A stretch of 64,000 bases of DNA from positions 17,489,001 to 17,553,000 of the forward strand of contig OX344765.1 of assembly GCA_947034895.1 (NCBI GenBank), written 5' to 3'. The stretch comes from Rhytidiadelphus loreus (taxonomy: Eukaryota > Streptophyta > Bryopsida > Hypnales > Hylocomiaceae). This document shows positions 25,773 through 64,000 of the stretch, piece after piece. Position 1 is the first letter of the stretch, and every line of letters starts with the position of its first letter. The notes under the pieces are model-generated. The model had not been told where the DNA came from and ran no database searches. It saw only the letters and a list, made by a program, of their open reading frames with translations. Both the position numbers and the translations under genes were made by a program.

Positions 25773-26918
25773 TTATTTTTGCTCTGTTAATCCAAACAAT
25801 TGCAACCACGTCGGCCAGGAAGCAGCTTCTGCAACATCAGAGACCGTGTTTGTGCCAGGTGATGGATCGCTTGGACCAGATTGTTCAGGGATCTCGAAGG
25901 CTGATGGAGGACTCATACATTCACTGCTGCAATCTTGGTCCACCTTCTCCCACGCGACCAGCTTCCCATCTATGATATGCGAAACTTTGCCCCCCCCTCC
26001 CGCAACTTCCTCCAACAATTTGAAAGCCTCTGTTTCGGAGTAAAGTATTTTACCTCTACGTTTTTTCGTCCTCGCAGTACCATCAGCCTTCCGGTTCGCT
26101 CGCGATTTAGGGTTGCTCTCCTTCTTTCTGATGCTACCTGGCAGTCTGGATCGTTTTACTTTGCGTTTAGGGCTTTTTGTTGTTGATGAGGGCTCCGATT
26201 CGGACGGACTTGAATCATCGTCGGAGAATCGCAAAGTGTGACTCGGAAACTTCTGGCGATGGCGAATGGCATTGCTGTTTCGTCGTTGGACGAGCTTTCC
26301 CGCTTGTGAGAATATGTACACGACGAATTTGGATTCAGCAACCACTGAGAAGAGGAGGAGATCTCCCCTTTCGAGTTGATGTGCATGAGAGAAGTCCCGC
26401 CATCCTGCCGCGAAGCTCACTCGCGCTTGAATCTTGGAAATCTGGATTTTCAGTCGCACTTTCCATACTTCACCGGTAGGTCCTTCAAGAGTCACGCATC
26501 TGTGGAACTTGTCACCATGCTCTTTTACGAAGGGCGCTGGCAGCTCCTAATCAATGCAACATGATAGAGCATGAGTAAACGCATGTGTTGTCCCTGGATT
26601 TGGAACCTCTGCCTTGTCAACGAATTTCTGGCTCGGAAGAAAACCGAAAGTACCAAAGTATTGTTCACTGGAAGAGAATATATGAAGGATCGATAGAATT
26701 GCAAAGATTGCTCGAGTCGTCTCTGCCCTTACCATGTGGTAACCTCCATGGTGATGTCCATTAAACACCATGGCATTGTACATCGTTCGCACAAAATAAG
26801 GAGTGGTGAATTCCTGGATCTTCGCCATCACTTCTGGACTGTATTTCACCGCACGCCCGCTGCTGACGTCCACGTTGTCCACATTCACTCGCACCATGAC
26901 GACGAGCTCCAGTTGCAT
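25773..26918 (-). CDS. B3-domain DNA-binding protein, two exons
   Basis: This is a plant-specific B3 transcription-factor-type protein expected in the nucleus. Exon 1 is 26918-26733 (donor CACATG then GTAAGG) and exon 2 is 26546-25773 (acceptor TTGATTAG). Together they give 319 aa in frame. Joining them completes a B3 domain (about residues 34-125): PYFVRTMYN then MELPAPFVKEHGDKFHRC, WKVRLK, GWRDFSHAHQLERGD and FVVYIFSQ. The domain is split by the intron just before ELPAPFV. A lysine/arginine-rich region follows (PKRKVKRSR, TKKRRGK), probably for nuclear import, then an acidic/serine-rich C-terminus. An in-frame TAA nine bases upstream supports the ATG at 26,918 unless another exon lies upstream. 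A single B3 domain with a basic tail resembles REM-like members, not ARF or ABI3/VAL. Confidence 0.85.
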
Positions 26919-30029: not shown

Positions 30030-30950
30030 CTATCCTCTGTTGTTAACGGCTACGCTTTTAGAGGATTCAACTTCGCTTCTTCAATGAACCTTGCTACCCC
30101 CTGCCGTTAATGGCTGCGCTTTTAGAGGATCCAAATTTGTTTTTTTATGGACCTTTCTACCCTCCGCCGTTAACGGCAGGAGATATAGAGATGCAACTTT
30201 GTTTTTTTTATGGACCTTGTTACCCCCCGCCGTTAACGGTGGGGTTTTTGGAGATGCAACTTTATTTTTCTTAAGGACCTTGTTACCCCCCGCCGTTAAC
30301 GGCGGGGGGTTTGGAGATGCAACTTTGTTTTTTTTATGGACCTTGTTACCCCCCGCCGTTAACGGTGGGGGTTTGGAGATGCAATTTTTTTTATTTTTAT
30401 GGACCTTATTACCCCCCGCCGTTAACGGCGGGGGGTTTGGAGATGCAACTTTGTTTTTTTTATGGACCTTGTTACCCCCCGCCGTTAACGGCGGGGGTTT
30501 GGAGATGCAATTTTATTTATTTTTATGGACCTTGTTACCCCCCGCCGTTAACGGCGGGGGGTTTGGAGATGCAACTTTGTTTTTTTTATGGACCTTGTTA
30601 CCCCCCGCCGTTAACGGCGGGGGATTGGAGATGCAATTTTTTTTTCTTTATGAACCTTATTACCCCCCGCCGTTAACGGCAGGGGGTTTGGAGATGCAAC
30701 TTTGTTTTTTTTATGGACCTTGTTACCCCCCGCCGTTAACGGCGGGGGTTTGGAGATGCAATTTTTTTTTTTTTATGAACCTTGTTACCCCCCGCCGTTA
30801 ACGGCGGGGGGTTTGGAGATGCAACTTTGTTTTTTTTATGGACCTTGCTACCCCCCGCCGTTAACGGCTACACTTTGAAAGGATCCAACTTCGCTTCTTG
30901 TATGGACCTTGTTACCCCCTCCATTAACAGCGGGGGTTTGAAAGACCACA
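30030..30950 (+). repeat. 63-bp minisatellite with a GTTAACGG-centred palindrome, about 14 units
   Basis: The core GTTAAC occurs at 30,169, 30,232, 30,295, 30,358, 30,421, 30,484, 30,547, 30,610, 30,672, 30,735, 30,797 and 30,860, with decayed units near 30,042, 30,103 and 30,924. The period is 62-63 bp. Each unit holds a GC-rich perfect palindrome of up to 22 bp with centre CCGCCGTTAACGGCGG, then a T-rich spacer ending in TATGGACCTTGTTACC. Two spacer types (AACTTTGTTTTTTT and AATTTTTTTTATTT) alternate through much of the array, so dimers of about 125 bp were probably amplified. Because 63 is divisible by three, a 236-codon frame with a 21-residue repeat results. I do not call it a gene. Confidence 0.9.
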
Positions 30951-38026: not shown

Positions 38027-40921
38027 TTCGGGAATTGCAATGATTCCTGCTCGAACTAGAAGTAGCTTTAAGCCGTTAACTCATTGAAGCTATAACTAGG
38101 TGCATGAATGAATTTGTCTTCCTTGACATCCATCTTGCAAAAGTACCTATACAAGTAGTATAGGTGTTTGCAATTTACATACTGTTGTCGACCTCCAATA
38201 GCAGAAACAACCATATTTAGAAAGTCTGGGCATGTGCACGTGGAAAACAGGCCAATTGTAATTCGATAGATGTTTTTTTTATGATCTGCCCCTGTCTCCA
38301 GTGACACTATTGCACCTAAACCTGGATTGGGGATTAAGGTTACTCCCAAAATTTGACCTTTAATGTTTCCTGCACTCTTCCACTTATTCTGTTGTTCTAT
38401 ACTTGGTGTATTTCCAATCCTTCGAATGGTTCGGTTGTTCCTAACCGTTGGATACACATCTGGATTCTTTGGTGGTGTCTGGTCAAATAAAATAGTGTTG
38501 AAAATCTTTGACATATTGAAAAGGCGACGAGGCGACAGTGTAGGGCGTTGCTGGAGTTGGAATCATGCATGTTGTAAGATCAGAGTTTCCTCCCGATTGA
38601 GGTGTGTTCCTGATAGAACTAGCCAAATCTCTGGCACCTCCGGCCAATCGATTATCCATTTCCGCTTTGAGCCTTTGACACATCGTTCTATATCATCCCA
38701 ACAAAACCAAAAGTCAACCACCACCTCTCGCTTACTTCCATACTCTACTTTTCTACCTCGATATGTTGGAGCTGGAGTTCCCTTCTTTCCCTTTGCAATT
38801 TTGGCAGTGCACTTCATATTTGACCCCCGCTGTTGAGCGTGACATTTTGCATTGGATTTGTGACTAATCCTTGCAATATGCCACTTTGATATGTCACAGT
38901 CACTTTCACACGCAACAATGACATGTGGAGAACTATTAGCGTCAGACTCTTTACCTTTCTCCTGCAAGATGTCATTAGAAGTTGTTGTAGACCTCGTTCG
39001 CACTCGCGGTTGACTGAAATTCACTTTGTCCAATTTGTGTGAGTCTCCAGCATCTCCAATGGGTACATCTAACTTCCTCTTTGTACTTCCAAAGACTTCT
39101 TCACCTTCCAAATGCGGTACACGATTTCCAAGCCCCTCTGCTCTAGGTAAAGTGTTCAATGCTTTTGCAATTTTCTTAGGATCTTTGCTTCATGTGGCAG
39201 CCCTCAACCTCAACTCTTCCTTAGAAGGACCAGAACCACATGCATGACCTCTAAGGTATGCCCGATAGTTTGTCATTTGCATCCAAGCACGAATACTGTC
39301 GTCACAAGTGGCATCAAACAAGTTGTTTCCCCTTTTCCCAGACATTTGCAGCCACTTGTTGTGGACTGTTTCAGATAAATTGCAGGACGGTAAGTCCAGC
39401 ATCTCTTCCAAATTCAATTTCTACATATTCAACCAAGTACAAGGTATAGTTAGCACTTCATTTTACAAACATCATAGACTTCTGTATTTACAAACTCAAT
39501 TGTGGTCCACTTAATATGTACTCTCATAAAGTCAAGGACAATCCAAGAGAAACTCATCTAGAAATATATTACAATATCAACAGCAAGAAGTACAATATTT
39601 ATCCAACTTCTATATATAGGAAAATGGTCACAATTTCTTTTAAAAACTAATTACTACTAGGCCATAGTTACTTTCAAAATATGGACTCCTACTAATCTCA
39701 TATTCTGTTGAAGGTATAAAAATGAAGAGGTCTAGCAATTACCCAAAACAGAATCGTCGGATCCGACGGATTTATCTTAACCATTTAAGGGACCCCCACA
39801 ATTTCGGTACTTTCTAGTAAATAATCAACAAATTTTTAAAATACAAAAGTGAGCGGCTTAGGGTCAGTATATGAACACATGTAAATTATAGAAAATTACA
39901 TGCAACAGTACAGGCTCAGATTTGCATTCAAGAAATGCCTCTTCTAAAAATAAAATACTTGCAAGCATTGAAATAATGAATCCACTGACCATGTCCATGA
40001 AACCTCCCCATTGCCGGTACCGAAAATGCTAGAATGCTAGCCAATGGTCTAAGTGATGAAGTAATTCTTCATTTGCAGCTCCAGATGATAGCCACCAGGA
40101 TCGTATTGCAGTGTACCGTGTCTCAGCCTAATCCATATTCTTCGAATCTTTGTACTGTTTATACAGAGAAATATGTTGATGTTGAAGTGCTTCTTTGATA
40201 TACTTCTGGGTGTGTTTATGAAGAGAACTACTCCAATGCAGCAAACATGTTCTCTCACGATTTTCCATTTTGTCATTGGTAGAGCCATTGTTGTAGACAA
40301 TACGTACCACGTTCCAATTGGCCATGGCACTATCTGCCATGAATCCTTTAAAGTTTGGCTGAGCCACTCCATGTTGCTCCATGACAGCGTTCAAACTTTT
40401 CCAAAACTGTACCTGCACCACAGTATCTTCGGACTGCATATCGCACATGGCAATTGTCATCACTTTTTTGTACTCAACATCGTATACGTGGTAGGCCATT
40501 GTGGTCCAATCCTTCACGCGCTTCACGTGATCAAACATCAACCACGCATTCTGAAGATTCCCTCCTGGTTGCATGCGCTTCACGAGGTCCACTCCACTTC
40601 CAGGTCCTTCCGTCAGCATTTTAAAAATGTAAACTTTCTCCTTGCCTTGACCTGGGAAGACGCTGTCATGTATGAATTCGAACTTTGACTCCTTCTTCAT
40701 TGTCATGATGTTGTCAATGATCCCTCCTCTGTTGTTTGAGCGAAATGACGAGATCACATTCCGAATATTTGGAGATGAAAGATATTGGAAGCGGTCCATA
40801 ACTTCTTCCATTTCCTCCCCCTTCAACATCTTCTTCTTTCCTTCTCCGTTGTGAAATAGATGATTAGTCAGAAAGTCTTTACTAGCAGAGAGAACAATTG
40901 CTGAGTTTGTGGCCGACGGTG

Positions 40922-51239: not shown

Positions 51240-53137
51240 GAGTGGAGGTAGGGGCGACCTCTTGTAGGAGTGATTTGTAGTGCAATTCAAAACTGCCACT
51301 TCTGTTGCAGTCATCCAAGAAAATAGAAAAAATATTTTTTGGAGAATCTAACCGTAACATCTTGTACTTAAGTTGTCTAAGATCATGTGGTAAAAATTTC
51401 ATAAAGTTTGGCCATATAGATTGGAAGATATTAGCATTCAAAGTTGGAAAAAAAAATTGAACTTTGGCTTGCAATTTCAGATGGCTTTCAATTGACCACC
51501 ATTTGTAGAAAAAAATTGCACTATAAACTCTAAATTTTAAAAAATTATGTTGAAAAATTGAATTGAAAGTTTAAGCAAAAAATTTCAATAGAAACACACT
51601 TTATTTTCATTCTTTAAGAAATTGTTGAATAGAAGTTGGTCTATGATTGAATGAAAAACTAAATTGTTAATAGCTCTAAGTTGGAATTGAAACACAATAA
51701 GCACAATGGTGAGATTGTTCTAGTAGACAAACTTAACTATATTAAACAATTTTCAAAAAAATTGTATAAATTGCATTCAAAAATATATCATATAAGATGT
51801 TTTTTCAAAAAATTGTTTAGATTGTCTAAAAGACAAGATTGTCCATAATTTTTTCATTGCTAGTCCAAATGGAATGAATCAAAGCTTCACATGTAGACAA
51901 AAATATAATATTTGAGGGAAAAAAATTTAATATTAATTGACTTATTGTAATTTTTTTGTTGCTTGCTGACCTCTATTTTCAGCTTAGGGTGGCATAAATT
52001 TTGCTTTTGGACACCAATTGAAGAAAAATTTATATTCTTACAAAGATGATGTATTCTTCTATCCTCCAAAAAAGTTCAAAAAATGAAAATGAAAATTGAG
52101 ACTATATGCACCTACTTGAACTCTTTAAAGTCCTTCAAAAGGACTCAAGTTGGTCCTTTAGGGGTTAAAACTCAAATTTATTTTTGTACACTTTTACACA
52201 CATTAGTTTAGAAGCAAATAAATTAAAGTACATTGTTTGGAAAAAATTACAAAATATTTGCACAAAAGAATTCAAATTCAAGATTCAATACATAGACCTT
52301 GGCACCTAGCGTTTTGAATATTTAATATTTTTTCTAAATGAAGGCCATATTCATTAAATTGAGACAATGTGGATTCTCATTTTAATCATCTTCCTAAATT
52401 TAGTATATAGAAGAGTTCATTAAATTGAGAGAATTCAATAAATTGAGACCATAAAATGCTGAAAGAATAAAGAATTTCTACAAGTATAAGAAATTGGGGG
52501 AAAAAAATAGTAATGAAGGACGTTGAAAGGAGGGATTTTGGACGGAAAACTTGAACCATTTATAATAAGTACTTAACTAAAATATCTAAGTAAATAGTTT
52601 GACATATGGTGAGGTAGAGAATTTTGAAATCATGCACAATAGAATACATTTGTACACCTAGTCTTACCAAAAACTACAATTTCAAAGTAAAGAATTTAAC
52701 ATATGCTTAGATAGAGAAGTTTAGAATTACTTTGTATAGAAAACATTAGTACTCCTAGTGTTCCAAAACAAATGTCATACACAATGGAATTACAATGAAG
52801 AATTTACAAAATACACAATACAATACAAGAATAAAGAATAGGAATATATTATATTATATTGTACAACATCTATAACATCAAATTCTAAAGTAATATAACG
52901 ATTAAAACAATGAACTAAAAGAATAAAAAAACTAAATCTATTTCATCTTCTCCACATGTTTTTTTCTAACAATTTTTCATTATATTTTTTTTGAGACATA
53001 TCTAAAAACACTATCAACTTCTACAACTCCTTATAATTTTTTTTTCCATTTTTTTTTCATCCTTCCTAAAGTTAAGAAAATAACGTACAAACACGCGAAA
53101 CTCCTAATGACTTTCTATGCCTACAAACTATTCATCT
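51240..53137. other. AT-rich gene-free stretch
   Basis: I see no gene, repeat array or RNA gene here. Confidence 0.5.
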
Positions 53138-55997
53138 TCACTCCGAAGATACATTATTGCTTTCGCCAGAGACATATGCATCCACCGATGTGTGGATGAT
53201 AGCAATTTGCGTTTTGGGAATTCTAACTCTTGGATCAGAAGTGCCTTCTTTGAAACGTGGCTTCCAAGCAGTCATAATGCAATCTGTATGCGTCCAACTC
53301 GGAGAGATAGCATTATCCTCGCACCAAGAATTCCCTTGTTTTGTGTCCCACCCAACATATGTTTCTTCATTGGTATGATGAAAAGACGTAGGTGTCCAAT
53401 ATTGCAGTTGAATTGAATTGACATGCCCTGGATCTGGATTAGGATTTGTTAGAGCTCGAGTAAGCCAAAATGGACGGAGGTCACCGTCAGCAGGGCGCAC
53501 AACAACTAAGTAACCTGCATATACATCACGGCCAACACGAAATGAAGGAGGTGGACGATCACGCCTGTGACCAACAAAAGGTGCATCTTCCGCAAACTCT
53601 TCACGCATCGTGCCATCATCTAGGTATTGGTCTTCCACCTCATCGGCAATTCGAGAATTTGGCCAAAGTCCATACCGTAATGTCTCATGCACCACAAGTG
53701 GAGCATTGAGAGCACTTCTTACACCCTCCCAATATTTTCGCACCGGCTCATTTTTCCTCCTAAACTCGCCAGATAAGTCTTGATTTCCCATTGCTCCCCA
53801 CAATGCAATGTATCCATCCAAACCCTTGCAAATCTCATCAAAACAACGCATTTGTTGCGGTGCCAAAGGTAGAGGACTACCCCTCGGTACTTTAGGGTGT
53901 CCATCTATTGTCTCCTTCCACAAGCGAATCCCCCCACCCTCTTTCGGCAACCAATCAACATCGGTACAAAGGATCTTGTATTGCATCAATGGCCATCCAT
54001 TAGAGTCCTTATAAAACTTGAACTGCTGCGCTTGAGAATGACCTTGAAGAGAATCATCGCCTGTATGCAAATACCCGTCCACAAATCGCTTGAAATCTGG
54101 AACCTCTTCAATGAGATGAGGAATCACGGGTTGTGTTTCGCAATCCATGAAAGACTTCATCAACCTCGGAAGCGTGGGGTAGTCATTCGTCTTCAATTTG
54201 GTGCTCCAACGACCAAATAGAGCATCAATGTCCTCGTGAGTGTGTCCAACAATGAGGAAATTGATGTATATCTCTCGGAAAATAGCTCTATAGACAAGGA
54301 GAGAACAGAATGCAAAAACCCACCGATTCTTGTTGTCGCCAGAAGCATTGTCAAGCTGAAGAGTCAATGTTGGAGGAAGAGGTTGAGCTTCCGCCAACAC
54401 TTTAGGGGGGGACCCAAGAGAGTCCGTGCAAATCTCTGAGCCTATTAACAAAGCCTCTGTCAATTCAGCACGCTCTCCTCCTACAAACAATTGACGAGAT
54501 GAATGCTTCGGTTGGGACTCTAGATCACGCAATAATTTTGCAATGGATCCAATAGTATGGTTGGAGTCTGTTGGGAAGATGTCCAAGCCATAGTGTGCAT
54601 ATCGCACATCTCCATGACCATGAGCAATCATGCCCGTAACAGCGACAGGCATCTTCATGAAAGAATCATTTCCCTTACTCTTGTGAGAGTAATGAGGAGA
54701 AGCAGTCTTGGAGTGATCCATCTTGTCATGGATTATAGTCAAAACCTTGTCAGGATACATCTCAGACATTGAGCGGTTTCCATAATACAAGTCCCTATGC
54801 GCCTTCTGTCCCGATAGGTGCACTCTCAATTTGTTAGACCACACGTCTTGTGCTCGCGAACGTGGAGTGCAAGCACTCTTAAGTTGCCTATATCTATCGC
54901 ACATTCCACAACGAGCAAAACTATCTCCTCTAGCCTTGGGAGCATACTCAGGAAAAGATTGACGACGAATGTTGCTCAATCCACTAGTCGAAATATGTTG
55001 CAATTGAAGTGAAGAATTGACATTGTTGATCTGTGGCAACTTGTCCTTCCAACGAAATGCAGACGGTAGGACCATGGAGGGAACTTTCTCTCCAGACTCA
55101 AGGGTCCTCGATTTGTGGGGCATCGTGTCCGCTTCATTCTCCACTAATAATCGAAGAGTTGCTGTGGCTTGCAAAGTGTGTGTCCGAGGTTCTTTCATTC
55201 CAAGGTTGCCATGATGCTCTGGTTTTTGGTCATCTTTTGCCATCTTTTGCCATCTTCTTGTATCTATAAAAAGTAGCCTTCGATACTCCATGGATGGCGC
55301 ACCAAGCAACCGAACAAATCTCATGGTTTGCCAAGGTGATTATGTCCCTACCATTGGAATCAGTGTGGGTTTGCTTGTGCACGTCAAGCAGACGTGACTT
55401 GCGCCAGAACACTCCACCGTCAATATGAAGTAGAGACCGAACGGCTTGAATCTGACCCCGTGGAAATGGTTGCAAGCAATTATTTTGGCAACATTTCATA
55501 CTAGAAACATCTGCAATTGCTTGCTCAATGAGGAGGGCTTCTTTCTTCGGGAGATTGGTAGGCTCAATCCTCTCACGTGAGCTTTCATAAGAGCGAACTC
55601 CAATCCGAATACGCCGCCTCGAACCGCTTGAAGAGACTGCAGTATTGAAGAGATGCGTTTGTTCGTGGTCATATAAGCTGGCACCATTAAGGTAGATCCT
55701 GGAAATGTGCCAGGAGTGCATGGACCACATCCACTCCGATGGAACATCTGCCTCACACAAAGACTCTGCAATTTGAATTGCAACCCGGTCATCACCGAGT
55801 GGCTTTCCGTCCATGTCAATGACGAGATCTGCATCAACACTATGACAAATTCCTTTTGCCACTTCGACCCCCTCTTCATTTCTGAGTGTGACGCATTTGG
55901 TATACCAAGAAGCTCGAGGAAATCCCTCGCAGGCTGCGACACCCAGCGGCAAAGTTGGCACTGGAACTGTAAACTCGTTGGCTTCTGAAGTATCCAT
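53138..55997 (-). pseudogene. DUF7869-like RNase H-fold transposase gene split by a 10-bp duplication
   Basis: Two adjoining minus-strand frames form one gene. The first runs from the ATG at 55,997 (MDTSEANEF) to 55,230. The second occupies 55,324-53,138 and ends VSSE. The word CATCTTTTGC at 55,231-55,240 and 55,241-55,250 is a perfect tandem duplication. With a single copy the frame would be continuous for about 949 residues. Visible features: Cys-rich N-terminal motifs (KCCQNNC; SVAWCAIHGVSKATFYRYKK), a second Cys pair (RCGMCDRYRQLKSAC), then acidic motifs in the order of an RNase H-like core: TIIHDKMDHSKT (54,709-54,750), LTLQLDNASGDNKNR (54,323-54,366), LIVGHTHEDIDALFGRWS (54,205-54,258). 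The family name comes from recall of similar proteins. Apart from the duplication the frame is intact over 2.8 kb, so decay is recent; a sequencing or assembly error is also possible. Confidence 0.8.
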
Positions 55998-57040
55998 TCT
56001 GCGCGTGAAAGAACACCAATTAAGTAATACAATTGAGAGTATCCTCGAGGCGAGGATAATAAATAAGAACGACACATTGACAAAATCAGGTGCAAAGTGA
56101 CTTGCACAGGAGAGTAAAATTGTAAACAATTTTGTGATCATGTATAATATTCCATCCACCTAGACTAAAGAACTGAAAATGCGACGAATTAGCATAGCAG
56201 AACCAGAAAATAGAATTTAATCTATTATCTTTGCATTCCTGAGAAGAATAATGAATTTTATTACTTTATCTACCAAACACTCTTAACTAGGAGTAAGAAA
56301 ATCAAAGGTATCTTCGATTCGAAGATAGCAGACGTCAAAGATTAAGAGATTTTATGCAGTCCCACACACATCGTTTGAGTGTCAGAGTTATTTTGTATAT
56401 AGCTTTGTATACCATCTCGAATGTCAATGAATGTCTTTCCTTGTCCATGGTTATCATTTACATTCTATGCATGTGTGCGATTATCCTCGAGCCGAGGATA
56501 ACCTCCATGCTTGTGCATGATTATCCTTGAGCCGAGGATAGCCTCCATGCATGAGTGTGATTATCCTCGAGCCGAGGATAACCTCCATTCATGTGTGTGA
56601 TTATCCTCAGTTCGAGGATAACATCCATGCATATGTGAGATTATCCTCGGTTCGAGGATAACCTCCATGCATGTGTGAGATTATCCTCGGTTCGAGGATA
56701 ACCTCCATGCATGTGTGAGATTATCCTCGGTTCGAGGATAACCTCCATGCATGAATGTGATTATCCATGCATGTTTGTGATTATCCTCGAACCGAGGATA
56801 TCCTCCATGCACGTATGTGTTAGACAAATTTATAGTTCCGATATTTACGACGTGAAAAGCGGTTGTTCTTTCTCGAGCATAACAGACAAAGTCCAACATT
56901 TGAGACGTGACATCGGAATTCTGAACTCCAAGAATCGGAGGACTATGTAATACTGCATGTACCTTTGCTTAACACTGAGGAGCAAGAGCACGAATCTAGC
57001 ACTCAATGAGAAGGGAAGAAGGGAAATAGAGGCACTTACG
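55998..57040 (-). other. Probable 5' intron of the DUF7869-like gene, carrying palindromes
   Basis: On minus, a donor (TTATC then GTAAGTGCC, plus 57,040-57,035) and an acceptor (CACGCGCAG then AATGG, at about 55,999) bracket about 1.04 kb that ends directly before the ATG. The intron holds ten copies of a 19-bp palindrome (see the array entry). The inferred leader exon, about 57,041-57,350, is pyrimidine-rich on the sense strand and less AT-rich than its flanks. Confidence 0.45.
56040..56810. repeat. Palindrome array 1: TATCYTCGRNYCGARGATA
   Basis: Nineteen-bp palindromes start at 56,040, 56,309, 56,482, 56,522, 56,562, 56,602, 56,642, 56,682, 56,722 and 56,782. From 56,482 on they form a 40-bp tandem unit with spacer ACCTCCATGCATGTGTGAGA; one unit near 56,762 is truncated to 20 bp. 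Both arm forms occur, TATCCTCG with CGAGGATA and TATCTTCG with CGAAGATA. Confidence 0.9.
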
Positions 57041-57359
57041 ATAACCCGTGCGAAACTAAGCCCCTTAGTCAATGAAACATGTAACATGTAAATGAATGCA
57101 AAAACAGAAGTTCGAAGGCCGTGCGGTAGCAATGTCTGCAAGAAGCCGCGGAGGAGGGAAAACTGGAAAACACGAGAGAGGAAATGAGGTGAGGAAGAGA
57201 GACGATGCAAACACTAGCGGGAGAAAATGAGCGGGAAATACAACGGCATTTGAGTTCTTCATGATTTTCTGGACGTAGGGGAGAAGTACCTCCTCGGATT
57301 AGGGGGGCGTTGACATTCGATTCGCACAAATAATGACAACGATGTGGAATATGAAGGAA

Positions 57360-60065
57360 CTTTTCATTAATAGAATTGGAATCTGACGTAGCCGATCTTT
57401 TTAAGATTTAAATAGGGCAATTTATAATTTGTGGATTTTTTGGCAGTCACCTTTTCTCAGAGAATGTGGAAATATTCGTTGAAAGCAGAGCGGAATTTAG
57501 AATTTGGCAAATTTGGCAATTCATACACCACCCGCCAAACACCCTTATCTTTAAAATAGTTTATTCTTAAGTCCGATTTAGATGAATGTGTAGGGGGAGG
57601 TAACCACACCAATTTGCCACATGTTGGGTCCAATGTGCATTGGCTATAAACAAAATTGTACCTAATGTAAGCTTTTAATAGGGAATGAAGTTAGGGCTTT
57701 AGGGTCTGGGGATCAATGTTTCTAGGGTTTAGGATTTAGGGTATAGGCTTTAAGGTTTAGGTTCTAGGGTTTAGGGTTTGACAAAGTATTGAATAAATGT
57801 AAATTGTACATTCACGAATTTAATATTCTTCAACATTAAGATTTTGCAAATTATATTGACAATTCATATTTGTTATTGAAATTCCAATATCCATAAATTG
57901 AAGGATGTTTCTTATTTAAAATTTGTTGGTTTTCTTAATTTTTTCAAATTAAAGCGCACGATAAAAAATAATACTTCCTATTTTGAATATTATTACTTTT
58001 GGTTAATAAATGATGTCCAATGTTGTGGATTTCTAAATGTTGTCCAATCTTTAACTTAATGTCATGGAAAATATACACAACTTAGAACTTCATTATTCAG
58101 AACAAAGAACAATGTGCAACTGTGAATTTTTTAAGATTCAATTTTATAGAATGTAGTTCTTCATATATTTTATTTTCCATAATGTTTTAACACATCCTAA
58201 GGAATTTTTATTTATAGAGGAGCACATTAAATACTTGTTATTCTTCTTCTAGAGTACATTGGAAACCAAAGAAGAAACGAAGACATTGATGCTATACTAC
58301 ATAGAATTAAAATCACAAAATCTTAAAATTTAATGAAGACAACTATAGGAGAACAAGAAAATAATATACGAGTTAAATTATGATAAAAATTTGAAAGAAT
58401 AATGATTCTTCAACATAGTAGATTATTGTGTTCAGTTGTTTTTTAAATTAGGAGGATTTGTAGGGGTAAACCAAAAATTTGCACAACACTGTAAAGAACT
58501 ACAATAAAATGAGATCCAAAAACTTTTATGAAGATGATGAGATGAAGGAAATAAAAAGCAAATGTTTAAAATATTTCAAAAAGAAAGTAGGATACTTGAA
58601 CTATACAAAGTAGGACCCCTATTTTTACAAGCTTGGTAACTATGTGAAGAGTACAAAATATTCAAAGACCTTTGCTCTAAGAAGCCAACATGTCCACCTT
58701 CATGGCATTCCAAACCATGATTTGAAGGATAATTGGCTTCAAATGAGACTACTTCGTTAGTACACTGAATGAATGATGGATTTTGCATTCATTTGCTCCC
58801 AATCATTATTATTAACTCCATCATGTTTTAGAGACTTGAACCACTTCAATGTCTCATAAATAATAATCATGCGAGGTTCACCTCCTAGAAATGAATGTAC
58901 TACAATGTATCCCATACAATGACTTTCAAAATTGTATGAAATTAAATACTATACTATACAAGTTTCAGAAATTCTTTACATCTTGTGTATTTAAAACACA
59001 TAATTATTCAAAAAGTGTAAGTTATGTATCAACGAAAGGCCTATTTTTTAACTACTACGAACAATTTTGAGTGTTATACTTTTATAATTTTGTGATGATA
59101 ACTTTTCAATAAACAAAATATTATATCGAACTAATTCGAGGTCTTTTTAACATGGAATTAAGAAGTAAAACAAACCAAGAGTTTAGGGTACTTTAAAAAC
59201 TAAATTCAATGCACAACAATCATGGAATTCTAATGAAGACAACCGATTGAAGAAAATGTAGAAGTTTCATTTTTTTTCTCATTCCACCCTAAAACCTATT
59301 CCGTGAATTCAAAAATAATAGTTCTTTAAACTACAAAACATGAAAACTTAATTTTTATGTTTTGTTGTGAAGTACCAAACAAATGGCACCAAAATAATTA
59401 ATACAAGAATCATAAATTCAAGTTCGAAATTTTTTCTACTTCTACATTTCATTTCTTGTCCCAATTTATGGTTATTCCATACCTTTTTAAATGTTAAATA
59501 TTTTAAATATGATGTTTAGGGTTTTATGGGTTAGAATCATCTACAAAATAAAAGTTCAATCTTTCTAATTTAAAAAAAATGAAATGGTAAAAATGGAATA
59601 GTTTATTATTTAATTATTCTTTTATTAATCACAATACTCAATATTACATATAAAATTTTAGTATATGGAATGCCCAAAATGTAATGTAAGCTTTGAATAG
59701 GGTATGGAATTCAGGTATTGTGTTTTGGTGCGTAAGTTCTAAAGGTGCTTGATTCATTTGAAATTCAGAGTGAATTCCACGAAGCTCAAAAAACATGTCA
59801 GTCATTTTGGATGTTGAATACATAACAAATTAAAAATATCATTGATTGAATTCTATTTAAACTTGATTAAACTAGCAAATATGGAAAACTCCTGCCAATG
59901 GCTATGGAGTATTTCCCACGTTCTTGTAGTACTAAGAGAAAGTCTACATTCAATAAAAGAAAGCCCAAAACAAATGAATTATAAAACTGGAAAATATAAG
60001 ACACACTTTGACAATTGTATGATTTATGTGTTCAACATCTCTTAGTCCCATCAGAGGGACTCTTC
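57360..60065. other. AT-rich stretch with degenerate telomere-like repeats
   Basis: No gene. At about 57,690-57,782 a degenerate run of TTTAGGG-type heptamers (TAGGGTTTAGG words) is an interstitial plant telomere-like repeat. Segments near 57,665-57,690 and 59,683-59,710 share AATGTAAGCTTTNAATAGGG, so another dispersed repeat is present. Confidence 0.55.
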
Positions 60066-60690
60066 AACTTCCTTATTTCGTAAATGACACCAAGGCCATT
60101 TCTTGGTCGATGAATGACAAACAATCTTGCCGATAAGGACACAAATGCAACTATTCATGCTCTAAAATGTGTGTGGGAAGGGAAGATCATCTACAATACT
60201 TTGTCTTGCAATGAGTACTTTTTCATTTTTTTAATCGAACAATTCATATACTGAGACAACAAACAATTTCCACGATGATTGACGTAGTGTTCAAGGATTA
60301 TTATTTTTTTAAACTAGCAACATTTAGGGAGCGCAAATGTCATGAGATATGATTTGTGGTTGAATAGTCAATTCTTTGAAATCAAATGCCACTTCTTAGA
60401 ATAACTGTGACCTACAAAAACTTAGTGAAGTGAAGTAAGTTCTCTTACATTCTTCAAACGCATAATGAAACCAAGGCCATTTTCTAGTCAATTAATGACA
60501 AAGAATCTTGCTACGTAAAACAAAAATGCAACTATTCATCCTCCAAAAAGTATGTGGAAACATAAGATCATCTACAATAGTTTCAATTGTCTTCCACTAA
60601 GTATTTTAAGATTTTTTGAAGCCAACAATTCATATAGGGACAAAATAGATAATTTCCGCGGTGACCTACTCATCGTTCAAGGCTTAAGGT
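60066..60690 (+). repeat. Diverged tandem duplication, period about 375 bp
   Basis: About 60,066-60,310 and 60,441-60,685 are homologous in the same orientation (ACCAAGGCCATTT, AATGCAACTATTCAT, AAGATCATCTACAATA, CAATTCATATA, then GTTCAAGG). No coding frame is conserved between the copies. Confidence 0.75.
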
Positions 60691-61705
60691 CTTAGGGACA
60701 CATACGTGAGCAGGGCCCCAAGCTCAAAACCAAAGTTTGGCGATGTAAATTTGGCAAAATAGGTTTGGGACAGGTAGTAGGTTTCACGAGGTAGGTTTGG
60801 GGAGGCCAATAGGATTGTGGAAATTGGTTTGTGAGGCCGAAGGCTTGGGAACGTAGGCTCGGGAGGTATAAGGCTTTAGGGAACGTAGGTTCGGGCGGCC
60901 GCAGGCTCGGTGGCGTAGGTTCGGTTGGTCGTCGGCTCGGGAGGACCTAGGGTCGGGCGGCCGCAGGCTCGATGGAGTAGGTTCGGCAGGTCGCCGGCTC
61001 GGGAGGACCTAGGGTCGGGAGGTCATCTCTCCCGACTCACAGGGCGCGGGGTTGTCGTGGAGTTTTCCAGCGGCGCTGAATTCAGTGTCTAGTCTTCCTG
61101 TTCTTGCTCGCAAGTTTTTGGTGCGTTGCTTGTCTTCTTTGAACGAGTGCGAGTTTCAGGTGAAGTTCCAGGCGTGGGTGTATCTTGAAGTTCCAGGCGC
61201 GAGTGCATCTGCAAGTTCCATGCGCGAGTATTTCGGCAGGCGCGAATTCGTTCAGTTGGGAGGAGCACTTCAACGACTGTTTCTTCCGGCGCGGGGGATT
61301 TCTAGCAGTGCGCTTGGATTTAGGGTTCAGCCCTGAAGAGCTCAGTTTTTTAGAAGTGCCGGAAGCTCAGGGTCGGAAGCTTAGGGTCGCGGGGATTTCT
61401 TCCGGCGCGGGGGATTTTGAGCGGTCCGCTTGGATTTCAGCAGTCCGTTTACAGCTGGGAGGATTTTTAGCAGTGCTGGAAGTTACAGGCGCGGGGATTT
61501 CTTCAGGCGCGGGATTTCGACCTGTCGCGGGGATTTTGAGCTGGCACGGGCATTTCGAGCAGGCGCGCGAGGTTTTCAGCTGCCGCGGGGAATCTGTGAC
61601 TTCTGAGCAAGCACGAGCGCAATTTTCAGGAGCGGCATCTTTTGAAGTTGTTGCATTTTTTGACATCAGAGCTCGGGAAAAAACACTTGTTGTGTTTTGA
61701 TTTCT
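60690..61705 (+). promoter_or_regulatory. GC-rich repeat island and probable leader exon of the plus-strand gene
   Basis: GC jumps from an AT-rich background to very high, CpG-dense sequence at 60,720-61,680. About 60,887-61,020 holds a unit of about 62 bp present twice (TAGGGTCGGGCGGCCGCAGG and GGCTCGGGAGGACC). About 61,150-61,610 holds reiterated GGCGCGGGGATTT and TTCCAGGCGCGAGTG words. The island ends at a strong splice donor (TTTCTG then GTAAGTACAG, 61,705/61,706). Open frames of 94 and 171 codons here are Ala/Gly/Arg-rich by-products of the repeats and are not called as genes. Confidence 0.45.
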
Positions 61706-62974
61706 GGTAAGTACAGTTTTGTGCTTGGCCTCCATGTAATGTGTTTTCTGAATTTGAAATGCTTGGAGTTTGTTTTCAACCCTTGTGACAGTTTTTGTTT
61801 ACAAGTGCAAATAGTTTTCTAGTGGTTGAGGTTCTTGAATTGAGTGCAAGGTTATACAATTCAGGTTTCAGTTCCTGTTTTCATTCTTTAGGCATGTTTA
61901 GTTTGCATTTCTTCTTCTTCTTGTTTCAATTGTTGTTGTCTTCACCAATTTATAACATTGTTGCAATTCCAATGCAAGTGCTACTGGTTTTGGTTTCTTG
62001 AGTTGTAGTATTCTGTTGTTTCCAGCATTGCTATTGGATTCATTGCTTGATTTCAATTCTATTTTGTATGCATGTGTTCAAAGTGAACTATAATCAAATC
62101 TCTGAATTCTGCGCGTGCCAAGAAGATGAGTATTACAATTAGGGTTTTCGTCACCATTCTTGTCAATTACTACTATTACCAACAGAAATTATCTTCGGCC
62201 CGAAGATAAAGAGAACAAAAAAATAAAAATGAAACACAATTATCCTCGGGCCGAGGATAAAAACACCAACAAAACCGACAGATATGTAAAAAAATAAAAT
62301 AATTATCCTCGGACCGAGGATAAAAACCCAACAAACCCAACAGAATTATATAAAAATAAAATAATTATCCTCGGGCCGAGGATAAAAATCAAACAAAACC
62401 AACAGAATTGTACAAAAATAAAATAATTATCCTCGGGCCGAGGATAAAACCCAACAAACCCAACAAAATTGTATAAAAATAAAAATAAAACAAGAAACTC
62501 CTATCCTCAAGCACGAGGATAATTATTTTATTTCCTAACTTCTAAAAATCAAATAGTTCTATAATAAAATAAAACGAGGAATAATTATCCTCGACACGAG
62601 GATAACTACTCAACGAAGAACATAGCCGAGGATAAAAATAACCGGAAATGCACAAATATAATATAAAAACTAAGAACATGTAGGTGTTATCCTCGACTCG
62701 AAGATAAAAGAAAATAAAAACTGTACAATGTAATGAAAATAAAAAAGAGAACGTACAGTATTATCTTCGTCTCGAAGATACAGAAACGTAACTTTGATTT
62801 ACAAATAAATTCTGTATGTTGATCACTGTCTTATATGATTTGTAGCCTTGCACAGAAAATATGCAGACGAATTACATTAGTTAGAACTTCAATCGTCTGT
62901 TATCTTCGAGGCGAAGATAAAATCAATGAATACCTCTGATCATCATGGTCTGTTATGCATAGGTTCATACCAGC
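61706..62974 (+). other. Probable 5' intron of the plus-strand gene, carrying palindromes
   Basis: The donor GTAAGTACAG at 61,706 and an acceptor CATACCAG just before the ATG at 62,975 would define an intron of about 1.27 kb. It is T-rich at first, then AT-rich with the palindrome array. As in the minus-strand gene, the acceptor lies within one base of the ATG. Inferred from signals only. Confidence 0.4.
62190..62919. repeat. Palindrome array 2: TATCYTCGRNYCGARGATA
   Basis: Copies start at 62,190, 62,241, 62,304, 62,366, 62,428, 62,502 (imperfect, 20 bp), 62,586, 62,688, 62,762 and 62,901, with a half site at about 62,625-62,634. Between 62,241 and 62,446 they form a unit of about 62 bp with an A-rich, CAACAAACCCAACAG-type spacer. 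The spacer is unrelated to that of array 1, while the palindrome is the same. Both arm forms (CCTCG/CGAGG and CTTCG/CGAAG) occur. Confidence 0.9.
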
Positions 62975-64000
62975 ATGGCTGCAGATACTGAGTACGATTA
63001 CTCAGCTACGCTCCCGTTTCTGGAGCCATTCAACAAATGGGTGGATGAGGAGCCCTTCATAACGGAAATGCCAGAGCTCTACGGCAAGCTCTGGCAATTC
63101 AAAGCCGTTGTCGACTCTTGGACATTCGGTGTTAACCAATCCAAGGACTACATCTACCTCCGTCACCGAGTGAAAGACAACGGGATGTACGTGAATTGGA
63201 ACCTGAGTGAGAAGGTCGCACTCGTGGAGAACCACCAAGACAAGTATATTGTCATCACCCTACAAGCGTATAACAACGCTGGGAGGGAAACGAAACATAC
63301 CCACTCCATTGTCTGCCATGAAGATGACTCGGTGGGAGTTTTCGACTTCGACAACCTCATCGCCGACTTGTACTCGGCAAACCACGATACCTTGGCTGAA
63401 GACTTTATTTCAAGGTACCACCCCTGGCTAAAAAGGAACGCTAGGGTCACGGCCAGGAAAGTTGGATACATGTTCCATAAGCTCACAGAGCACGCTAAGG
63501 AACATGTCCACAAAGCACCTGCTCGAACGAGTCAGGGTCGTGGTCAACAAAGGCAGAAAACTGCCAATGAGACAAAATCAGCGTCTGGAGTGCGTGGCCG
63601 CACAGGGAGTAGAGGAAGTGGGAGAGGGACGGCCCGCACTCAGGCCCAGAAGAGGAAGGACCCAGAATCCACTACTGGCGAGCCTAGTGGAAAACGCAAG
63701 AAATCTGTAGCGGAGACTCGCCCAGCTACCGCTGGCAGTTCAGGCTCTATACTGACAAATGTGAATCCACGGAAGCCATCAGATAGGAAGCCGATAGAGA
63801 AACATGAAGTGGCTGGAGCGTATCAGTCAGATTTTTGGAAGGAAAATGGCAAGTGCTTCATTTTTCATCCACAAATCTTTACAGTACACATCAAACAATG
63901 CTTCCTGGCCAAGGAAAGATATATTATTCGGAAGCTAGAAATGAGAATGGTGTTTGAGATGAAAGACACCCTTGTTCATCTTGGCTCTGAGCAGCAAAGA
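62975..64000 (+). CDS. Unknown protein, N-terminal 342 residues; continues beyond the window
   Basis: An uninterrupted frame runs from the ATG at 62,975 (MAADTEYDYSATLPFLEPF) to the last base. An in-frame TAG lies 15 bases upstream, so this ATG is the first possible start unless a coding exon is spliced on. I do not recognise the family. Residues 1-175 look like a folded, soluble alpha/beta domain with many aromatic residues and mixed charge (WQFKAVVDSWTFGVNQSKDY, VGVFDFDNLIADLYS, KVGYMFHKLTEHAKEH). Residues about 180-245 are a disordered, basic RG/RK-rich linker (GRGQQRQK, RGRTGSRGSGRG, GKRKK), likely for nuclear or nucleic-acid contact. A second folded region begins near 280 (QSDFWKENGKCFIFHPQIF). 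No signal peptide or membrane segment. It faces away from the transposase gene at 53-56 kb and shares its intronic palindromes, so a mobile-element accessory protein is possible. Confidence 0.7.
   Translation, partial: MAADTEYDYSATLPFLEPFNKWVDEEPFITEMPELYGKLWQFKAVVDSWTFGVNQSKDYIYLRHRVKDNGMYVNWNLSEKVALVENHQDKYIVITLQAYNNAGRETKHTHSIVCHEDDSVGVFDFDNLIADLYSANHDTLAEDFISRYHPWLKRNARVTARKVGYMFHKLTEHAKEHVHKAPARTSQGRGQQRQKTANETKSASGVRGRTGSRGSGRGTARTQAQKRKDPESTTGEPSGKRKKSVAETRPATAGSSGSILTNVNPRKPSDRKPIEKHEVAGAYQSDFWKENGKCFIFHPQIFTVHIKQCFLAKERYIIRKLEMRMVFEMKDTLVHLGSEQQR

What the first reader, a model, noticed from the sequence alone, without database searches (positions are those of the whole stretch)
55998..62974. 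Two divergent, unrelated genes share the same 19-bp palindrome array in their 5' introns
Seen: ten copies of TATCYTCGRNYCGARGATA at 56,040-56,800 and ten more plus a half site at 62,190-62,919, and none noticed elsewhere in the window. Each array lies between a strong donor and an acceptor that is within a base or so of an ATG, once on minus and once on plus. The spacers differ (a 40-bp unit in one, about 62 bp in the other) while the palindrome is the same. The arms switch together between CCTCG/CGAGG and CTTCG/CGAAG, which suggests selection on symmetry. Inference: binding sites for a dimeric protein, possibly one encoded by either gene, or RNA hairpins in the pre-mRNA. The pair could be a two-gene mobile element or an autoregulated module.
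Basis: partly seen in the sequence, partly recalled or inferred. Interest (0 to 1): 0.88.

Follow-up and report, generated by a model that had tools for sequence, protein, structure and literature searches.

The report
Moss transposon carrying self-recognition palindrome arrays
The two palindrome arrays lie inside one copy of an 18-kb jumping gene, repeated some 260 times in a moss-like genome, that probably encodes a relative of a bacterial DNA-clamp protein (ParB) and scatters about 30 likely docking sites for it along its own DNA.

The parts
52341..64000 (.). Part of an 18,157-bp DNA transposon inside the window; the right end lies outside, at the place that would be window 70497 (L009:6497)
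   Evidence: Breakpoints shared with other copies; inverted repeats and TSD AATG/AATG
52341..52367 (+). Left terminal inverted repeat, 27 bp
   Evidence: Perfect inverted copy at the right end; 252 + and 262 - ends genome-wide at <=2 mismatches, control 0
53133..53151 (.). Palindrome site spanning the gene-1 stop codon (2 arm mismatches)
   Evidence: present in 7 of 7 copies, identity 0.99
53138..55997 (-). Gene 1, DUF7869 protein (PF25273), probable DDE transposase; ATG at 55997; the frame changes at a short tandem repeat 55231-55256 that the six other aligned copies lack
   Evidence: Pfam 7.8e-47; integrase/transposase-like fold of relative P0007; tblastn over 947 aa in two frames; repeat
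55999..57039 (-). Putative gene-1 5' intron
   Evidence: Acceptor conserved 7 of 7, donor GT 6 of 7; no RNA data
56040..56800 (.). Array 1: ten palindromes, seven of them at 40-bp steps (56482-56740)
57040..57300 (-). Gene-1 5' exon/promoter region (far limit approximate)
   Evidence: Upstream of the donor; CpG o/e 0.92 over 57042-57700; inference
57701..60700 (.). Central AT-rich spacer without palindromes
60701..61706 (+). Gene-2 promoter/5' exon region (left limit approximate)
   Evidence: Ends at a donor GT conserved 7 of 7; CpG o/e 1.08 over 60701-61710; inference
61707..62973 (+). Putative gene-2 5' intron (the acceptor may be at 62962 rather than 62973)
   Evidence: no RNA data
62190..62919 (.). 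Array 2: nine palindromes plus one irregular (62502-62521), partly in a 62-bp tandem
   Evidence: conservation
62975..64000 (+). Gene 2, first coding exon (runs to about 64400 outside the window; in-frame stop at about 64181 in this copy): N-terminal weakly PH/FERM-like domain, then a ParB-like domain
   Evidence: Homologues; AlphaFold model of homologue P0001 and fold searches; tblastn; stop seen

Best explanation
SHOWN: the arrays belong to a high-copy, roughly 18-kb DNA transposon with 27-bp terminal inverted repeats and 4-bp target duplications. It carries a DUF7869 gene with an integrase/transposase-like predicted fold, a divergent gene with a ParB-like predicted domain, a NIF-type phosphatase ORF and another ORF. 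About 30 copies of one 21-bp palindrome sit at largely fixed places: in introns, at the gene-1 stop, and in some coding stretches. INFERRED: the ParB-like gene-2 protein binds the palindromes as a dimer. The clustered sites nucleate a coat or clamp over the element, so that the element recognises its own DNA and controls its own expression, most likely by countering host silencing. It would be a ParB/parS-like way of doing what VANC proteins do for Arabidopsis VANDAL transposons.
Against: No binding, expression or methylation data. No DNA-binding domain was identified in gene 2; the model covers only the first coding exon of a homologue, and pTM is 0.44. The conserved box reads GQHS, not ParB's GERR (the latter recalled), so CTP binding is doubtful. 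Gene 1 travels with gene 2, so it too could be the binder. Divergence of the site with gene 2 is incomplete: the family of L037 keeps the window-type motif, L039 holds one unchanged site, and in 8 of the 10 L038/L039 sites the two arms differ from each other at the inner positions, so symmetric change is clear only for the variant beside the gene-2 exon. 9 of the 22 perfect variant places, and 20 of the 28 listed one-mismatch ones (17 of the 67 were not listed), lie near no gene 2 that I counted (44 of 86 scored rows, themselves 86 of 1142 candidates). L029 has two palindromes without gene 2 or an inverted repeat. CpG content shows no sign of protection in the array spacers (0.51-0.64). Alignment of repeated motifs tends to place sites on sites, which inflates site conservation in the arrays.
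Confidence: 0.58

Rival explanations
1. The palindromes are binding sites of the gene-1 transposase, used for synapsis or to regulate transposition, like the subterminal repeats of Spm-type elements (recalled).
For: Gene 1 is with the sites in 7 of 7 complete copies and has two Cys/His clusters (my reading). The divergent pair is kept in diverged families, so sites that accompany gene 2 also accompany gene 1.
Against: Over 7 copies the first site lies 792-797 bp from the left end and the last 546-1015 bp from the right end, further in than subterminal transposase sites usually lie (recalled). The variant palindrome sits beside gene-2 exons.
Confidence: 0.19
2. The palindromes act as RNA hairpins in the pre-mRNAs (splicing control, retention or small-RNA production).
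For: A 9-bp stem with a 3-nt loop is possible. Counted over all copies, mixed arms at positions 5/15 favour transcript-sense G-U over A-C, 43 to 15.
Against: Counted over distinct sequences the excess vanishes, 9 to 10. The inner pair 9/11 is complementary less often than expected (0.25 against 0.34). Conserved sites also span the gene-1 stop codon and lie in coding stretches.
Confidence: 0.08
3. The palindromes bind a host dimeric protein (transcription factor, insulator or origin factor) and serve only as promoter-proximal enhancers.
For: Many lie in first introns next to promoter-like, CpG-rich regions. Window-type sites persist in some diverged families (L037), as a shared host factor would predict.
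Against: At the gene-2 exon position both arms changed together in a diverged family, and the genome-wide site count matches the element count. A host factor would not be expected to diverge with the element.
Confidence: 0.12
4. Neutral tandem-repeat homogenisation made the arrays.
For: Site number varies between copies (28-39).
Against: The same palindrome sits in unrelated units of about 40, 37 and 62 bp and as single sites; conservation stops at its edges.
Confidence: 0.03

Closest known systems
ParB-like + DNA-methyltransferase accessory proteins of algal giant transposons (Sola1-1_Ec32 of Ectocarpus, PMC12477816, passages seen; its refs 50 and 51 not read)
   Same: A ParB-like protein encoded on the strand opposite the transposase of a large DNA transposon; the authors suggest that such proteins bind and modify their own element
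   Different: Here the host is a land plant and the transposase is of the DUF7869 family; a methyltransferase domain is only suggested by motif reading; likely binding sites are visible. In the passages seen no sites are described.
VANC21/VANC6 anti-silencing proteins of VANDAL transposons in Arabidopsis (PMC5735166, outline and passages; PMC10398659, abstract and section list)
   Same: Element-borne protein; short motif arrays, often tandem, in non-coding parts including introns; high motif density confined to the family; related families have different motifs
   Different: The VANC21 motif is a 9-mer repeated in one orientation; here it is a 21-bp palindrome. The protein has a ParB-like predicted domain; no loss of DNA methylation has been shown here.
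Bacterial ParB/Noc/KorB with parS-type palindromes (PMC7333895, passages); VirB of Shigella, studied as a CTP-dependent regulator that offsets silencing (PMC10653881, start of abstract; ParB kinship recalled)
   Same: Predicted ParB N-domain fold; clustered palindromic sites; array of short tandem units like sopC (recalled)
   Different: Eukaryotic transposon; other site sequence; GERR box reads GQHS; ParA not looked for; no helix-turn-helix domain identified
DUF7869 proteins (PF25273) of mosses
   Same: Gene 1 belongs to this family by sequence
   Different: Pfam describes it as a domain of unknown function, and no paper in the library names it

Membership tests
Cut-and-paste (TIR) DNA transposon | Terminal inverted repeats | tested here: met
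   27-bp perfect repeats at both ends of the complete copies (R6 and R7 within 2 mismatches)
Cut-and-paste (TIR) DNA transposon | Target-site duplication of fixed length | tested here: met
   Exactly 4 bp in 7 of 7 complete copies
Cut-and-paste (TIR) DNA transposon | DDE/RNase-H-like transposase | tested here: inconclusive
   [not shown]
DUF7869 (PF25273) | Pfam gathering score | tested here: met
   159.8 bits, cut-off 26
ParB family (ParABS) | ParB N-domain fold | tested here: met
   [not shown]
ParB family (ParABS) | Arginine-rich GERR nucleotide box | tested here: inconclusive
   Nearly invariant I406 N407 G408 Q409 H410 S411 in alignment A4; correspondence read by eye, GERR recalled
ParB family (ParABS) | parS consensus sequence | tested here: not met
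   The site TTATCYTCGRNYCGARGATAA differs from bacterial parS (recalled)
ParB family (ParABS) | Helix-turn-helix DNA-binding domain, ParA partner | not tested
ParB-methyltransferase transposon accessory proteins | ParB-like gene opposite to the transposase in the same element | tested here: met
ParB-methyltransferase transposon accessory proteins | DNA methyltransferase domain | tested here: inconclusive
   Motif-like stretch in L009:499-2088; no Pfam match, no named PHROGs match; BLASTP with E. coli YhdJ aligns the motif region at only 16.9 bits
VANC-type anti-silencing system | Motif arrays in non-coding parts, largely confined to the family | tested here: met
   some sites also lie in coding stretches
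VANC-type anti-silencing system | Related families use different motifs | tested here: inconclusive
   Altered palindromes in 2 of 3 diverged loci and 67 variant places; the third locus keeps the window-type motif and most altered sites are asymmetric
VANC-type anti-silencing system | Protein related to VANC | not tested
   No VANC sequence compared; Pfam gave no family above its cut-off for gene 2
VANC-type anti-silencing system | Loss of DNA methylation over the element | not testable with these tools
   Needs bisulfite data
Sola superfamily | 4-bp TSD (recalled) and Sola transposase | tested here: inconclusive
   4-bp TSD present; no Sola transposase compared

The most novel reading that the evidence does not exclude
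A eukaryotic ParB/parS-like self-marking system: the transposon's gene-2 protein is a nucleotide-gated DNA clamp that loads at the palindromes and spreads over its 18 kb, excluding host silencing. Diverged families are splitting into mutually blind versions as the palindrome arms change together with the protein.
Probability: 0.23. Interest if true: 0.9.

Novelty: new variant of a known kind. Interest (0 to 1): 0.73.

Why it matters
ParB-like proteins of algal transposons have been suspected of binding their own element. This finding supplies a concrete, testable site, hundreds of natural copies, and diverged families with altered sites as built-in specificity controls. If the protein does bind, it would be a self-recognition device in a land-plant transposon that resembles bacterial ParB/parS, and would extend the VANC idea (element-borne anti-silencing through motif arrays) to another kind of protein. 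It also proposes a role, probable transposase, for the undescribed DUF7869 family of mosses.

Tried and rejected
Rejected: chance; a window-only curiosity; neutral repeat spread. RNA hairpin: transcript-sense wobble counts were mixed, 43:15 over all sites but 9:10 over distinct ones. CpG protection of array spacers: not seen. Methyltransferase domain: only a motif reading; Pfam, PHROGs and YhdJ did not support it. Copy R3 as a test of which gene the sites need: not usable, because its fetched stretch is interrupted before gene 1 and a left end lies some 46 kb from the right one. Sequence search of solved structures gave nothing useful for gene 1 (best E 0.88), the gene-2 profile (none), exon 2 (best E 0.086, ribosomal protein) or the NIF ORF (none). 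Viral contigs: none confirmed for gene 1, the palindrome pair, gene 2 or the gene-1 profile; prokaryote genomes: none confirmed for gene 2. Before the genome could be searched, equal contig lengths in two protein lists hinted at linkage (9 shared, shifted control 0.006 for contigs above 15 kb; only the 120 listed of 227 and of 210 hits); distances in the two lists did not agree clearly (by eye, no statistic). Literature: no paper names DUF7869; the searches listed none that, by title or abstract start, describes ParB-like proteins or palindrome arrays in moss transposons (listings were capped; only CC-licensed PMC papers are held).

For these I lowered the best explanation from 0.60 to 0.58 and the novel case from 0.27 to 0.23, and raised the transposase rival from 0.17 to 0.19.
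Full report
WHAT WAS REPORTED AND WHETHER IT IS THERE. The window holds 19 palindromes at most one mismatch from TATCYTCGRNYCGARGATA in two clusters, 56040-56800 (10) and 62190-62919 (9), plus a weaker one at 53133; shuffled sequence gives 0.23 on average. A tenth right-hand site has a 4-base centre (62502-62521). Both clusters lie in putative first introns just before the ATG of two divergent genes. The splice signals are largely conserved between seven copies (gene-1 donor 6 of 7), except that the gene-2 acceptor is probably 62962 rather than the AG touching the ATG, which only the window copy has. No RNA data could be consulted.

WHAT IT IS. When the whole genome became searchable, the window proved to lie at G000:C5:17489001-17553000 of a 407-Mb assembly. 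The palindrome (<=2 mismatches) occurs 7776 times, the pattern read backwards 66 times. Comparing six regions showed similarity that starts and stops at the same two points (R3 on the right side only). These points are a 27-bp terminal inverted repeat, flanked in 7 of 7 complete copies by an exact 4-bp target duplication: AATG, CTTG, TATA, GTAC, TACA, TATT, TTTG. The repeat occurs 252 + 262 times, control 0. So this is a DNA transposon. Six complete copies are 18.1-18.7 kb; the seventh, R1, is 25.8 kb, with about 7 kb of extra DNA in its central region. The window copy runs from 52341 to what would be 70497. Complete copies carry on average 29.4 palindromes by the same criterion, so 7776 sites predict 264 elements, against 257 from half the number of ends, fragments included.

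THE SITES ARE UNDER CONSTRAINT. Over seven elements there are 203 sites at <=1 mismatch with a 3-base centre, and 0, 0, 0, 1, 0, 0, 0 with centres of 0, 1, 2, 4, 5, 6, 7. Information content is confined to 21 bp, TTATCYTCGRNYCGARGATAA, although the sites sit in unrelated repeat units (40 bp before gene 1, about 62 bp before gene 2, 37 bp near the right end) and as single sites. In an alignment of seven copies, 24 of the 30 window-copy sites are more conserved than both flanks; the other 6 are not. In the gene-2 intron the better ones read 0.9 against 0.6-0.7; 62241, 62688 and 62762 read 0.66-0.75. Alignment of repeated motifs inflates this in the arrays, less so at single intron sites such as 64411 (0.97 against 0.83 and 0.73) and 64522 (0.89 against 0.58 and 0.66). 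Positions 5 and 15 covary (75% complementary against 51% expected among 93 distinct sites).

THE SITES ACCOMPANY GENE 2 AND, IN PART, DIVERGE WITH IT. A clustered palindrome group without the inverted repeat (L030) lies directly before a decayed, diverged gene-2 relative (46% identity to P0001). A search with P0004 found more diverged families (86 scored of 1142 candidates). The upstream 2 kb of three such loci were fetched, and each holds five hits of TTATCNNCGNNNCGNNGATAA at <=2 mismatches; shuffles (<=3 mismatches) give about 0.1, and 130,640 bp of other fetched DNA outside the elements gives 2, both in L029. L037 keeps the window-type motif. In L038 and L039 most sites have altered arms, but in 8 of these 10 sites the two arms are altered unequally. 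A symmetric variant, TATCACCGANTCGGTGATA, occurs 67 times in the genome (<=1 mismatch), control 0. Of its 22 perfect occurrences 13 lie 7-20 bp after the end of a gene-2 match, the place held in the window family by site 64411. The other 9, and 20 of the 28 one-mismatch places listed (17 of 67 places were not listed), are near none of the 44 gene-2 rows used. Gene order is kept as well: of 54 gene-1 matches to P0012 (scored of 2116 candidates), 15 pair with one of those 44 gene-2 rows within 20 kb, all divergent, none in another orientation, 0.23 expected.

HOW IT MOST LIKELY WORKS. A protein that reads the palindrome as a dimer explains the symmetry, the placement in unrelated units and the paired arm changes. 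Diverged families keep site positions around gene 2 while some change the site, which a host factor would not readily explain, and the gene-2 protein has a fold whose bacterial members (ParB, Noc, KorB) load at palindromes. The transposase is the next candidate; over seven copies the outermost sites lie 792-797 bp from the left end and 546-1015 bp from the right end. Sites throughout the non-coding parts of the element, tandem growth, a family-bound motif and gene-proximal position match VANC anti-silencing arrays in Arabidopsis (PMC5735166). I therefore favour self-recognition for control of expression and silencing by the gene-2 protein (0.58), with the transposase, a host factor and RNA hairpins as rivals. 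Not shown: binding, nucleotide dependence, any effect on methylation or transcription. ParB membership is not claimed: the fold is met, the parS sequence is not, the nucleotide box looks altered, and the DNA-binding part is unknown.

NOVELTY. ParB-like accessory proteins with methyltransferase domains are reported in algal and brown-algal transposons (PMC12477816; passages), and motif arrays bound by element proteins are known from VANDALs. The combination, the visible palindrome arrays, their partial divergence with gene 2, and the land-plant host were not found in print in the searches (CC-licensed PMC papers, capped listings). I rate it a new variant of a known kind.

Noticed in passing
L009:3906-4754 (right part of the same element, outside the window): The transposon carries a NIF/FCP1-type phosphatase ORF (PF03031, E 1.9e-15), an unexpected cargo for a DNA transposon.
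   Followed up: partly
L029:4984-5122 (C1:4716384): Two palindromes 120 bp apart without gene 2 or an inverted repeat in the 10 kb fetched; their element, if any, was not identified.
   Followed up: partly
window 53133-53151: A palindrome spans the gene-1 stop codon and is present in 7 of 7 copies, so coding sequence and site overlap.
   Followed up: partly
window 38068-39189, minus: ORFs with a weak SWIM zinc-finger match and look-alikes near L029 and L030 (by eye), probably another mobile family.
   Followed up: no
window 30084-30940: A 63-bp tandem array (about 13.7 copies) open in several frames.
   Followed up: no
protein P0224: A gene-2 relative is deposited in a MAG named Candidatus Nitrosocosmicus; this looks like moss contamination.
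   Followed up: no
R1 copy, C1:316001-356000: This copy is 25.8 kb, with about 7 kb of extra DNA in the central region, probably a nested insertion.
   Followed up: no
[not shown]
   Followed up: no
window 25773-26546, minus: B3 DNA-binding domain ORF (PF02362, E 4.8e-15), consistent with a plant genome.
   Followed up: no
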